NCBI RefSeq assembly: GCF_024741795.1
Contig: NZ_CP102950.1
Location: 1-64,000 of the forward strand
Length of the DNA stretch: 64,000 nt
Direction: 5' to 3'
Source of the DNA: Arthrobacter sp. CJ23
Lineage (GTDB): Bacteria; Actinomycetota; Actinomycetes; Actinomycetales; Micrococcaceae
The notes under the pieces are model-generated. The model saw nothing but the letters and a program-made list of their open reading frames with translations. It was not told the origin of the DNA and searched no databases. The translations under genes and the position numbers were made by a program. This document shows positions 15,204 to 18,233 of the stretch, one piece after another (position 1 is the first letter of the stretch; every line of letters starts with the position of its first letter).

Positions 15204-15356
15204 AATTACCTCCCGATACACATGCTGATTAATTGTTAGCCTACGTCGCCTGACCCGCACGGGCCATTCATCTGAAGGATTGTCGGGAGATTTCACCGAG
15301 CGCGGAACCGCCCCCACGGCTCCTTTGGCGTTGACCCTGCATGAAAGAATGTGGCT

Positions 15357-15899
15357 ATGACCATCGCAACAGCAAAAGCAACCATCCACACGAACCTCGG
15401 CGACATCGTGGTTGACCTCTTCGGCAACCACGCCCCCAAGACGGTCGCCAACTTCGTCGGCCTGGCCACGGGCGAAAAGTCCTGGACGCACCCGGAAACC
15501 GGCGAAGACAAGACCGGTACCCCGCTGTACAACGGCACCATCTTCCACCGCATCATCAAGGACTTCATGATCCAGGCCGGCGATCCGCTGGGCCGCGGCG
15601 TGGGCGGACCGGGCTACAAGTTCGACGACGAAATCCACCCGGAACTGAACTTCAACTCCCCCTACAAGCTGGCCATGGCCAACGCCGGCATCCAGATGGG
15701 CAAGGGCACCAACGGCTCGCAGTTCTTCATCACCACCGTCAACACCGACTGGCTGTTCGGCAAGCACAGCATCTTCGGCGAGGTTGTGGATGAAGAGTCC
15801 CGCAAGGTTGTCGACGCCATCGAAGCCGTCCGCACCGGCATGGGCGACCGCCCTGTTGAAGACGTCGTCATCAACAGCATCGACGTCGTACAGCTCTAG
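15357..15899 (+). CDS. ppiA: Peptidyl-prolyl cis-trans isomerase, cyclophilin type
   Basis: Cyclophilins speed the cis-trans isomerisation of X-Pro bonds. The 180-residue cytosolic protein has no signal peptide and spans one cyclophilin domain. Active-site blocks are FHRIIKDFMIQAGDP near 62-76, GSQFFITT near 120-127, and LFGKHSIFGEV near 134-144. The catalytic Arg is in FHRI, and the Phe and Gln of DFMIQAGDP are present. His replaces the Trp that confers cyclosporin sensitivity in human CypA (LFGKHSIFGEV), as in many bacterial forms. ATG at 15357 was chosen over the GTG two codons upstream. The ppiA-rhomboid order is common in Micrococcales. Confidence 0.95.
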   Translation: MTIATAKATIHTNLGDIVVDLFGNHAPKTVANFVGLATGEKSWTHPETGEDKTGTPLYNGTIFHRIIKDFMIQAGDPLGRGVGGPGYKFDDEIHPELNFNSPYKLAMANAGIQMGKGTNGSQFFITTVNTDWLFGKHSIFGEVVDEESRKVVDAIEAVRTGMGDRPVEDVVINSIDVVQL

Positions 15900-15950: not shown

Positions 15951-16832
15951 ATGAGTTACGGAATCCCGGCGGCAGAGCCGTCCGCAGACATCCCGGTGTG
16001 TCCCCGGCACCCGGACAGGCCTTCCTATGTCCGGTGCCAGCGCTGCGGGCGCCCTGCGTGCCCCGAATGCCAGCGGGCGGCCGCCGTCGGGTTCCAATGC
16101 ATTGACTGCGTCAATGAAACAAAACGCACGACGCCAGGCGTCCAGTCCGTCTACGGCGGCACCTTGGCCGCTGGCCGGCCCTTGGCGACGTACCTGATTA
16201 TCGCGCTTTGCGTTGTGGTCTACGTGCTGCAGTGGCTGGTCCCGGGCGACGTTCTGGCTGATCAGTTTGCCTTTGCCGCCGGATATGTCCAGCCAGACGT
16301 TGGTCAGTTCGAACCATGGCGGATGCTGACTGCCGCCTTCCTGCACTCCCAGGGTTTCCTGCTCCACATCGTGCTCAACATGTACACGCTCTGGATCTTC
16401 GGGCAGGCCCTTGAACCGATCCTGGGCCGCTTGCGGTTCCTTGCGGTCTATGTTCTTTCCGCCATCGGTGGATCCGTGGGCTTCCTGCTGCTCACCCCCT
16501 TGTTTGCGCCCGGCCACCCGACCAGTCCGGTAGTGGGTGCCTCGGGAGCCATCTTTGGCCTGTTTGGCGCCATGCTGGTGGTCCAGCGGCACCGCGGTGG
16601 CGACACCAGGCAGCTCTGGATCCTGATCGCCATCAACGGCGTGATCGGATTCATGGTGCCCAGCATCGCCTGGCAGGCCCACTTGGGCGGCCTGGTGACT
16701 GGTGCGCTGAGCGCCGCGGTCATCGCCTACGCCCCGCGGGGCAAGAACCGCAGCCTGCTGCAGGCCGCCGGGCTGGTCCTGGTGCTCGTCCTGCTGGCCC
16801 TGGCCGCCTGGATCCGCGTCACGACGGGCTAG
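15951..16832 (+). CDS. Rhomboid intramembrane serine protease with N-terminal zinc-finger-like domain
   Basis: Rhomboids cleave substrate proteins within the membrane. The 293-residue protein starts with a Cys/His-rich cytosolic module (C17, H20, C29, C32, C37, C40, C50, C53) resembling a B-box-type zinc finger. Six or seven membrane helices follow from about 78. The catalytic dyad is Ser198 in GASGAIFG and His244 in WQAHLGG; the accessory HIVLNMYTL block around 139-147 is also conserved. ATG at 15951 lies 51 bp after ppiA, so cotranscription is possible. Its substrates are unknown. The class E sortase further downstream is one of several single-pass proteins encoded nearby, but no link is visible. 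Confidence 0.9.
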   Translation: MSYGIPAAEPSADIPVCPRHPDRPSYVRCQRCGRPACPECQRAAAVGFQCIDCVNETKRTTPGVQSVYGGTLAAGRPLATYLIIALCVVVYVLQWLVPGDVLADQFAFAAGYVQPDVGQFEPWRMLTAAFLHSQGFLLHIVLNMYTLWIFGQALEPILGRLRFLAVYVLSAIGGSVGFLLLTPLFAPGHPTSPVVGASGAIFGLFGAMLVVQRHRGGDTRQLWILIAINGVIGFMVPSIAWQAHLGGLVTGALSAAVIAYAPRGKNRSLLQAAGLVLVLVLLALAAWIRVTTG

Positions 16833-17633
16833 TTCTCCTCACCCCCGCATCCCCTGCTTGTATCTCCGCCTGCACCTCTGCACGCGGCCGTTCAGTGCTG
16901 CCCGGAAGTTTTCCACAGCCGTTATCCACACTGTGCGTAACTTACATGGTTGTAGTTCTGGCGCCGCCGCCCCGCAAGGAGCCTAAGTTAGCCCGCACAG
17001 CCGCTTTTCCCTGAGCCAGAGTCCACAGCTGTGGATAACTTTCGCCCACAGCCTCCTGTTTTTGTGGACAACCGCGGGTTTGGCGGGACTGCTGTGGACA
17101 ACGTCGGCGACTCGGGGTGGAACAGGCTGCTATCAACAGGGTTATCAACAATGTTAATAACTTCCATGGCTGTAGTTTGAGTCTTGCGAAGGGCCCCGGA
17201 TCCCAGTACTGGGGCGGATTGTCATCGTTCAGCCGGATGTTTGTCCCCATCTGTGGATAACTTGTGGGTAGTGGCTTGTTGTTAAGTGGGTAACACCGCT
17301 TGCCTCCCCGGCTGCACCCCGAGCGCCTCGCGCGGGCACGCAAGCAGCGGCCGCTGGATGAAGAATTCAATCCGTCCGGGGTGAACAATCCATGAAGCCG
17401 CAGACACTATCCACAGCGTTGTTCACATTGGGCATAACTCCTCTGACGGGGTGGAGGTGATGGAAACTCCCGCAATGCCGGTTCTTTTCCCCAGGAATGC
17501 GTGGATGTCCACACGAGTTATCCACGCCTGTGGATAAAGTTACGCACTTCTGTGGACAGCAGCTGTGGAGATCCCGGCCCTGCGCAGGCCCAAACCGTGC
17601 ACAGCCCAAACCCCACCCAGCTCCAAACGCCGC
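16833..17633. other. 800-bp gene-free region with a dense DnaA-box cluster
   Basis: No credible gene fills this gap. Exact TTATCCACA boxes (either strand) lie at 16922-16930, 17030-17038, 17252-17260 and 17529-17537. TGTGGACAA variants, the form favoured in actinobacteria, lie at 17063-17071 and 17093-17101. One-mismatch boxes include 16909-16917, 17142-17150 (TTATCAACA), 17407-17415, 17419-17427 and 17518-17526. That is more boxes than the dnaA-dnaN origin, 15 kb away. An AT-rich run at about 17130-17162 lies inside the cluster. It could be a DnaA-titrating or DnaA-reactivating locus, or a second part of the origin; function is inferred. Confidence 0.75.
16921..17177. repeat. Repeated 37-bp module inside the DnaA-box cluster
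   Basis: Copies at 16921-16957 and 17141-17177 agree at 30 of 37 positions by eye. Each starts with GTTATC(C/A)ACA, that is a DnaA box, and ends with AACTT(A/C)CATGG(T/C)TGTAGTT. The spacing between box and tail is the same in both copies, which suggests a composite binding site used twice. Confidence 0.7.
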
Positions 17634-18233
17634 TCAGGCCCAGACGCCCGAGCTTCCCCGGCGGTGGCTGTCCACCAGGTGCGTGTCGATGATCCCCACG
17701 GCCTCCATCAGCGCGTACATGGTGGTGGGCCCGACGAAGGCGAAACCCTTCTTGCGCAGCGCCTTGGAGAGGGCCACGGATTCCGGTGACTGCGTGGGAA
17801 CCTCGCCGAGGGTCCGCGGCTCCGGCGTGGTCTCCGGGCGGAACGACCAGACGAAGTCCACCAGGCCGCCCTCTTCGCGCAGGGCGATGGTTGCCTTGGC
17901 ATTGGTGATGGTGGCCCGGATCTTGAGCCGGTTCCGCACGATGCCGGCATCCAGCATGAGCCGTTCGACGTCGTCCTCGGTGAAGGCAGCGACACTCTCC
18001 GGGTGGAAGTCCAGGAAGGCCGCCCGGAAGCCGGGGCGCTTGCGCAGGATAGTGGCCCAGGACAGTCCTGCCTGGAAGCCTTCGAGGCTGATGCGCTCGT
18101 ACATGCCCTGCTCGTCGCGGACCGGCATGCCCCATTCATGGTCGTAGTACTCGCGCAGGAGCGGATCCACAGACGCCCATGCCGGGCGGGCCAGGCCGTC
18201 GTCGCCGAGGATGGTGCCGTTCTCCGGGGTCAT
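17634..18233 (-). CDS. tag: DNA-3-methyladenine glycosylase I (Tag-like), zinc ligands lost
   Basis: Tag excises 3-methyladenine from alkylated DNA. The 199-residue protein shows the family blocks DPLLREYYDHEWGMP (23-37), EGFQAGLSWATILRKR (51-66), LMLDAGIVRNRLKI and DFVWSF, then GFAFVGPTTMYALMEAVG near 163-180. Compared with E. coli Tag, the zinc ligands Cys4, His17 and Cys179 are replaced by Pro17, Tyr30 and Ser189, and only His185 remains, so it should not hold that zinc. It is the last gene of a minus-strand alkylation-repair run, 56 bp after alkB. Family membership is strong; retained activity is assumed. Confidence 0.88.
   Translation of the reverse strand: MTPENGTILGDDGLARPAWASVDPLLREYYDHEWGMPVRDEQGMYERISLEGFQAGLSWATILRKRPGFRAAFLDFHPESVAAFTEDDVERLMLDAGIVRNRLKIRATITNAKATIALREEGGLVDFVWSFRPETTPEPRTLGEVPTQSPESVALSKALRKKGFAFVGPTTMYALMEAVGIIDTHLVDSHRRGSSGVWA

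What the first reader, a model, noticed from the sequence alone, without database searches (positions are those of the whole stretch)
16909..17560. Second DnaA-box cluster, 15 kb from oriC
The gap between the rhomboid and tag genes carries four exact TTATCCACA boxes, two TGTGGACAA boxes and at least five one-mismatch boxes in about 650 bp. That is denser than the dnaA-dnaN origin. Known loci of this kind are E. coli datA and DARS and the B. subtilis DnaA-box clusters, which tune initiation. I know of no described equivalent in Arthrobacter-type bacteria. It could titrate DnaA, recharge it, or be part of a split origin.
Basis: partly seen in the sequence, partly recalled or inferred. Interest (0 to 1): 0.82.

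Follow-up and report, generated by a model that had tools for sequence, protein, structure and literature searches.

The report
Conserved DnaA control site near origin
Close to the replication origin, this soil bacterium and many of its relatives keep a patterned patch of binding sites for the replication-starting protein DnaA, which probably helps set when the chromosome is copied.

Summary
The cluster is real. The 801-bp gap between the convergent genes rhomboid and tag holds 4 exact and 6 one-mismatch DnaA boxes; 2000 shuffles average 0.12, maximum 3. It is the densest group in the closed 4.63-Mb genome.

All 78 usable genus loci have a triad; reversed-box and upstream controls have none. 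A profile search of the class, blind to place, led back to ppiA-rhomboid: 43 of 60 fetched hits lie 0-1.5 kb downstream of it. Anchored on rhomboid instead, 53 of 80 class genomes have a triad, reversed control 0.

The triad has the topology of E. coli DARS cores (spacing 12/14 there, 11-13/10-11 here); datA has none.

Reading: an origin-proximal DnaA-control locus of the datA/DARS/Streptomyces-cluster kind, with an arrangement I found undescribed for Actinomycetes. Sign of action unknown; binding untested; a split origin is not supported.

The parts
16833..17633 (.). Gene-free gap between convergent rhomboid (+) and tag (-) that holds the DnaA-box locus
   Evidence: box counts
16909..16940 (+). 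Triad 1: boxes 16909+ (TTTTCCACA), 16922+ (exact), 16932- (TTACGCACA); spacing 13/10
16938..16957 (+). Palindrome element TAACTTACA-N4-TGTAGTT after triad 1 (core 16942-16955)
17030..17038 (-). Exact inverted box, 108 bp after the box at 16922
17063..17101 (-). Two TTGTCCACA boxes, 17063- and 17093-
17130..17160 (+). Triad 2: boxes 17130+ (CTATCAACA), 17142+ (TTATCAACA), 17152- (TTATTAACA); spacing 12/10
17158..17177 (+). Second palindrome element, one mismatch (TAACTTCCA-N4-TGTAGTT)
17241..17271 (-). Triad 3, on the minus strand: boxes 17263-, 17252- (exact), 17241+ (TTGTCCCCA); spacing 11/11
17407..17437 (+). Triad 4: boxes 17407+ (CTATCCACA), 17419+ (TTGTTCACA), 17429- (TTATGCCCA); spacing 12/10
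17505..17537 (+). Triad 5: boxes 17505+ (ATGTCCACA), 17518+ (TTATCCACG), 17529- (exact); spacing 13/11
15351..15899 (+). Cyclophilin-type PPIase (ppiA-like), conserved neighbour
   Evidence: Pfam PF00160; neighbours in relatives
15951..16832 (+). Rhomboid gene, the anchor of the locus in relatives
   Evidence: Pfam PF01694
1423..1963 (.). dnaA-dnaN gap (presumed oriC), for comparison: three boxes with at most one mismatch and one triad spaced 12/15

Best explanation
A non-coding, origin-proximal DnaA-assembly locus that controls how much initiation-competent DnaA is available after oriC fires. SHOWN by sequence: five convergent (→→←) box triads with near-fixed spacing, two followed by a palindrome, conserved beside ppiA-rhomboid through the genus and in many families of the class. 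INFERRED: DnaA binds the triads, and the facing boxes bring DnaA molecules head-to-head as at E. coli DARS cores. Lying about 15 kb from oriC, the locus is doubled very soon after initiation, and the DnaA complex on it then changes the free amount or the nucleotide state of DnaA. My guess for the sign is net restraint of re-initiation, by analogy with the S. coelicolor and B. subtilis clusters; a recharging role is the main rival. In lineages that carry the palindrome, an unidentified protein bound there would play the part IHF and Fis play in E. coli.
For: Box density far above chance. Box order, strand and spacing repeat across 80 loci; at least one triad in 78 of 78 usable genus loci, 283 convergent against 62 all-tandem and 4 divergent, 0 with the reversed box and 0 in the 2.5 kb upstream of rhomboid. 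Unit in 101 of 295 family genomes, reversed pattern 0. Profile hits found blind to place lie 0-1.5 kb downstream of PPIase/rhomboid in 43 of 60 fetched class hits. Rhomboid-anchored sample: 38 of 80 genomes with two or more boxes, control 0; 53 of 80 with a triad, control 0. Facing boxes are called essential at DARS. Clusters near oriC are cited as repressing untimely initiation in S. coelicolor and B. subtilis. Convergent neighbours in the window rule out a promoter of either.
Against: No binding or functional data. 27 of 80 anchored class genomes show no triad in the stretch read, and 17 of 60 profile hits lie elsewhere than 0-1.5 kb downstream. The palindrome is in only 14 of 80. oriC of the window has a triad too, spaced 12/15, so the triad is not exclusive to this locus. 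Facing-box geometry would predict recharging, not restraint, if E. coli rules hold. Four family genomes carry a second copy elsewhere.
Confidence: 0.5

Rival explanations
1. A DARS-like recharging site: ADP-DnaA on the facing boxes releases ADP, so the locus promotes initiation.
For: Same triad topology as both E. coli DARS cores, absent from datA; facing boxes I and II are described as characteristic of DARS and essential.
Against: Box II to box I distance is 10-11 bp, not 14. E. coli DARS lie between oriC and terC, and moving DARS2 next to oriC moderately inhibits timely initiation (passage). No IHF consensus with at most one mismatch in the gap.
Confidence: 0.25
2. A simple sink: the boxes only titrate DnaA, and their geometry does not matter.
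For: Many strong boxes (6 of the 71 strong boxes of the genome) that double soon after initiation.
Against: Strand and spacing are conserved far beyond need (283 convergent against 4 divergent triads). A dozen or so sites bind few DnaA molecules compared with the usual cellular pool (recalled).
Confidence: 0.1
3. A DnaA-dependent structural or segregation site, or a regulator of distant transcription, with no direct role in initiation.
For: Near oriC; another box group of the same genome lies among two parS-like sites; an extra palindrome suggests a second protein.
Against: Nothing specific links it to segregation; in the window the neighbours converge, so no promoter faces out of the gap.
Confidence: 0.1
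4. Part of a split or second replication origin.
For: Triads of boxes close to dnaA; oriC of the window has a triad too.
Against: No AT-rich unwinding stretch outside the boxes; 15 kb from dnaA, whereas divided origins are described as up to about 2 kb (passage). GC skew was too noisy to decide.
Confidence: 0.02
5. A structured RNA or another transcribed element made of inverted repeats.
For: The + strand folds somewhat better than shuffles (z -2.5, 0 of 100 shuffles as good). In first units box and inverted partner are complementary in 68 of 73 cases with an exact partner, though both are then simply the DnaA consensus.
Against: - strand z -1.1. Rfam finds only two tRNAs in 1-30000. In later units the + box differs from its exact inverted partner in 67 of 67 cases with an exact partner, so pairing is not kept.
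Confidence: 0.02

Closest known systems
E. coli DARS1 and DARS2 cores (DnaA-reactivating sequences)
   Same: Three boxes, two tandem and one facing them; exactly one such triad in each E. coli stretch scanned; intergenic
   Different: 12/14 spacing against 11-13/10-11; one core each against five triads; far from oriC; IHF/Fis sites against an unrelated palindrome in some lineages
E. coli datA
   Same: Intergenic DnaA-box cluster outside oriC, downstream of genes; acts on DnaA supply
   Different: datA's essential boxes share one direction and need IHF; no triad found in the datA stretch
Streptomyces coelicolor DnaA-box clusters near oriC (Smulczyk-Krawczyszyn 2006; names H69, H24, D78 and the D78 results are recalled)
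   Same: Same class; clusters near oriC cited as repressing untimely initiation (passages). One of them (H69) may be the same locus, to be checked
   Different: Paper not held; no sequence of it compared; triads, palindrome and class-wide conservation are not mentioned in the citing passages I saw
Bacillus subtilis DnaA-box clusters (Okumura 2012, cited)
   Same: DnaA-box clusters outside oriC cited as repressing untimely initiation
   Different: Another phylum; sequences not compared here; known from recall to be several loci

Membership tests
DARS | Three boxes I-III with box I facing II and III (head-to-head) | tested here: met
   Five such triads in the window cluster; at least one in 78 of 78 usable genus loci
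DARS | Same inter-box spacing as DARS1/DARS2 (12/14 in the E. coli stretches) | tested here: not met
   Mostly 13/10, 11/11, 13/11, 12/10 and 11/10
DARS | Stimulates ADP release from ADP-DnaA | not testable with these tools
   Needs biochemistry
DARS | IHF and Fis sites (DARS2) | tested here: not met
   IHF consensus TAAnnnnTTGATW: none with at most 1 mismatch, three with 2, in the gap; Fis not tested
datA | Essential boxes all in one direction | tested here: not met
   Boxes on both strands with facing pairs
datA | IHF site between boxes | tested here: not met
   None with at most 1 mismatch
S. coelicolor type DnaA-box clusters near oriC | Cluster of strong boxes outside oriC but close to it | tested here: met
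   6 strong boxes, about 15 kb from the dnaA-dnaN gap
S. coelicolor type DnaA-box clusters near oriC | High DnaA affinity; deletion raises initiation | not testable with these tools
   Needs experiments; the S. coelicolor result is recalled and cited in passages
Bipartite (split) oriC | Second box cluster flanking dnaA within about 2 kb | tested here: not met
   About 15 kb from dnaA-dnaN; size limit from a passage
Bipartite (split) oriC | AT-rich unwinding element next to boxes | tested here: inconclusive
   None seen by composition in this gap (lowest 30-bp G+C 0.27, within boxes); the element could sit in the dnaA-dnaN half

The most novel reading that the evidence does not exclude
A DnaA switch of the class Actinomycetes: a convergent DnaA-box triad fixed beside ppiA-rhomboid and close to oriC, multiplied to several copies in Arthrobacter, assembles DnaA head-to-head and converts it between active and inactive nucleotide states in step with fork passage. 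In many lineages an unknown dimeric protein on AATTACA-N4-TGTAATT works with it. It would be an actinomycete counterpart of datA/DARS with its own geometry, possibly matched to the DnaA domain I dimer reported for this class (abstract and passages).
Probability: 0.33. Interest if true: 0.88.

Novelty: new variant of a known kind. Interest (0 to 1): 0.74.

Why it matters
How actinomycetes keep replication to once per cycle is poorly known; E. coli regulators such as Hda and SeqA are, from recall, absent there. A DnaA-box element kept in geometry and place over much of a class is a concrete candidate for part of that control. It names a DNA segment to delete, turn round or move in laboratory actinomycetes, and a bait for an unknown partner protein. 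It would also show that the facing-box arrangement of E. coli DARS recurs outside proteobacteria.

Tried and rejected
GC skew around dnaA was too noisy to speak for or against a second origin. RNA reading: folding, Rfam and box-pair counts gave no support. Promoter of a neighbour: rejected because the genes converge. IHF site: none with at most one mismatch. Palindrome elsewhere in the genome: TTACA-N4-TGTAR occurs at 16942 and at one other place (1305664, listed on both strands), reversed control 2 + 2 listings, so no regulon is visible; the longer form has two further copies with 2 and 3 mismatches, reversed control 5 listings. A strict triad pattern gave 5 of 346 phylum genomes (4 of 32 in the class, 1 of 314 outside it), too strict to set limits of distribution. 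Palindromic sites known to me (parS, BldD, LexA, IHF) were compared from recall only; none fits AATTACA-N4-TGTAATT. Literature searches found nothing on this locus: (library of open-licence papers only). Papers: passages only of PMC4285127, PMC5742627, PMC4585315, PMC4210621, PMC10950094, PMC3219685; reference-list hits only in PMC3411110 and PMC13121528; no hits in PMC13220808; outline and passages of PMC13270200; passages and one section of PMC10380432.

Full report
OBSERVATION. The window starts at dnaA of a closed 4,628,024-bp contig. Between rhomboid (15951-16832, +) and tag (17634-18233, -; Pfam) lie ten boxes with at most one mismatch to TTATCCACA, four of them exact. Two thousand dinucleotide shuffles of the 801-bp gap give mean 0.12, maximum 3. 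The genome has 36 exact TTATCCACA and 35 TTGTCCACA; six of these 71 lie here, and the other groups have two or three. The genes converge, so the gap is the promoter of neither.

CONSERVATION IN THE GENUS. A rhomboid query returned 80 loci from named records: Arthrobacter, Pseudarthrobacter, Paenarthrobacter and one Sinomonas, two genomes giving two loci each. In the 77 loci with at least 0.9 kb downstream, the first kilobase holds on average 7.7 boxes with at most one mismatch and 3.5 exact, against 0.45 and 0.16 per kb in the rest of the loci. In eight loci the first kilobase has none or one box and the cluster starts 1.0-2.2 kb downstream; one locus ends at the gene. Order, strand and spacing repeat from species to species.

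THE UNIT. Alignment of 14 sequences, anchored on the first box, shows a composite unit: TTATCCACA-N-TGTTnnTAACTTACA-N4-TGTAGTT. The window has it at 16922 and 17142; the palindrome part has no copy as good elsewhere in its genome. In 177 genus units and 36 units of other genera most box and palindrome positions are 72-100% conserved (weaker at columns 14 and 34 outside the genus), while the N positions and the flank vary freely; these units were picked by at most five mismatches to the motif, which flatters the figures. With at most three mismatches the unit occurs in 101 of 295 family genomes, 15 of 32 genera and 24 of 24 same-genus genomes; the reversed pattern gives none. Of 20 stretches fetched around hits in other genera, 19 have rhomboid beside the hit.

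THE TRIAD. Allowing weaker boxes, the cluster resolves into five triads: two tandem boxes 11-13 bp apart and a third facing them 10-11 bp further. In 78 genus loci (two of the 80 dropped for under 700 bp downstream) there are 283 convergent triads against 62 all-tandem and 4 divergent; all 78 have at least one and 77 have two or more; the reversed box and the 2.5 kb upstream of rhomboid give none. The same scan finds one triad each in the E. coli stretches holding DARS1 and DARS2, both spaced 12/14, none in the datA stretch, and one spaced 12/15 in the window's own dnaA-dnaN gap. Reviews say that in DARS box I faces II and III with equal spacing in both loci and that this head-to-head arrangement is essential, while datA's essential boxes share one direction (passages; section).

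BEYOND THE GENUS. A sequence-only profile of 50 units hit 50 of 248 genomes of the order at E <= 0.001 and 96 of 296 of the class at E <= 0.01; the tool's stricter filters make these low estimates, and both samples include members of the genus. Of 35 stretches fetched from 31 of the order genomes, 28 hold rhomboid. From the class search I fetched the best hit of the 60 best-scoring genomes outside the order: 52 have PPIase or rhomboid in the stretch of up to 12 kb, and 43 lie 0-1.5 kb downstream of it, 37 of them on its strand. The other 17: eight with neither gene, three on the gyrB side, six overlapping the gene end or 1.6-2.5 kb downstream. gyrA or gyrB is in the stretch in 18 of 60, which places those near the origin region. 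Distance to oriC was measured only in the window's genome.

GENE-ANCHORED TEST. To avoid choosing by motif I searched 89 class genomes with a rhomboid alignment; 85 had a match and 80 were used (dropped: two truncated at the contig end, two with only weak matches, one with under 500 bp downstream). 38 of 80 have two or more boxes in 1.2 kb, reversed box 0 of 80; 121 boxes against 4. With a looser rule (sum of mismatches at most 4 to TTRTCCACA) 53 of 80 have a triad within 1.4 kb (29 genomes) or up to 3 kb (51 genomes), reversed box 0; 36 of the 59 triads are spaced 13/10. 27 of 80 have none. The palindrome is in 14 of 80, control 0: the triad is the wide core, the palindrome belongs to some lineages. 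In one family (f22) motif hits sit beside PPIase without rhomboid (for example L235, L250, L285), so rhomboid anchoring undercounts. Aligned class hits suggest TTATCCACA-n-TGTGGATAA followed by AATTACA-N4-TGTAATT, but the profile that chose them contains the palindrome.

WHAT IT IS NOT. No AT-rich stretch outside the boxes, unlike the dnaA-dnaN gap. RNA folding z -2.5 on +, -1.1 on -. In later units the plus box differs from its exact inverted partner in 67 of 67 cases that have one; in first units both are exact in 68 of 73, which says nothing about pairing. No IHF consensus with at most one mismatch.

HOW IT PROBABLY WORKS. Shown: box content, geometry, place and conservation. Inferred: DnaA binding, head-to-head assembly, early doubling after initiation, an effect on DnaA supply. 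Conserved orientation and spacing argue against a mere sink. Nearness to oriC and the S. coelicolor and B. subtilis precedents favour restraint; the geometry favours nucleotide exchange. I put restraint ahead. A 2026 paper reports a DnaA domain I dimer conserved across the same class (abstract and passages); a match to the facing boxes is speculation.

NOVELTY. Extra-oriC DnaA-box control loci are known. An origin-proximal array of convergent triads conserved over much of Actinomycetes I found in none of my searches, which cover an open-licence library only. The key Streptomyces paper was not held, and one of its clusters may be this locus.

Noticed in passing
G000:C1:4530857-4531303 (L286 7858-8304), 97 kb left of dnaA: A second group of boxes (two exact, one TTGTCCACA, two weaker) at the 5' end and upstream of dnaB (L286 6296-7894 -, Pfam DnaB_C 1.4e-107): the replicative helicase gene may be under DnaA control.
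   Followed up: partly
G000:C1:4619129-4619456 (L287 7130-7457), 9 kb left of dnaA: Two exact boxes and a weaker one among two GTTTCACGTGAAAC sites, which match parS as I recall it.
   Followed up: no
L287 15802-15949, within about 225 bp before dnaA: Four boxes with at most one mismatch (one exact) just upstream of dnaA, as for an autoregulated dnaA promoter.
   Followed up: no
L204 (G151), L206 (G206), L209 (G174), L212 (G181): Four genomes of the family have a second profile hit away from rhomboid, near sodA/MarR, a homocysteine S-methyltransferase, no Pfam match, and an amino acid permease: possible duplicates of the locus.
   Followed up: partly
L254, L258, L284 (and L261, without PPIase in the stretch): In four genomes of 1.3-1.4 Mb of one family the profile hit lies just before gyrB rather than after rhomboid.
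   Followed up: no
window 15993-16073 (rhomboid N-terminus): The rhomboid has an N-terminal B-box zinc-finger match just over its cut-off (24.3 against 24.1 bits, residues 15-41), and cysteines there are kept in the class consensus.
   Followed up: no
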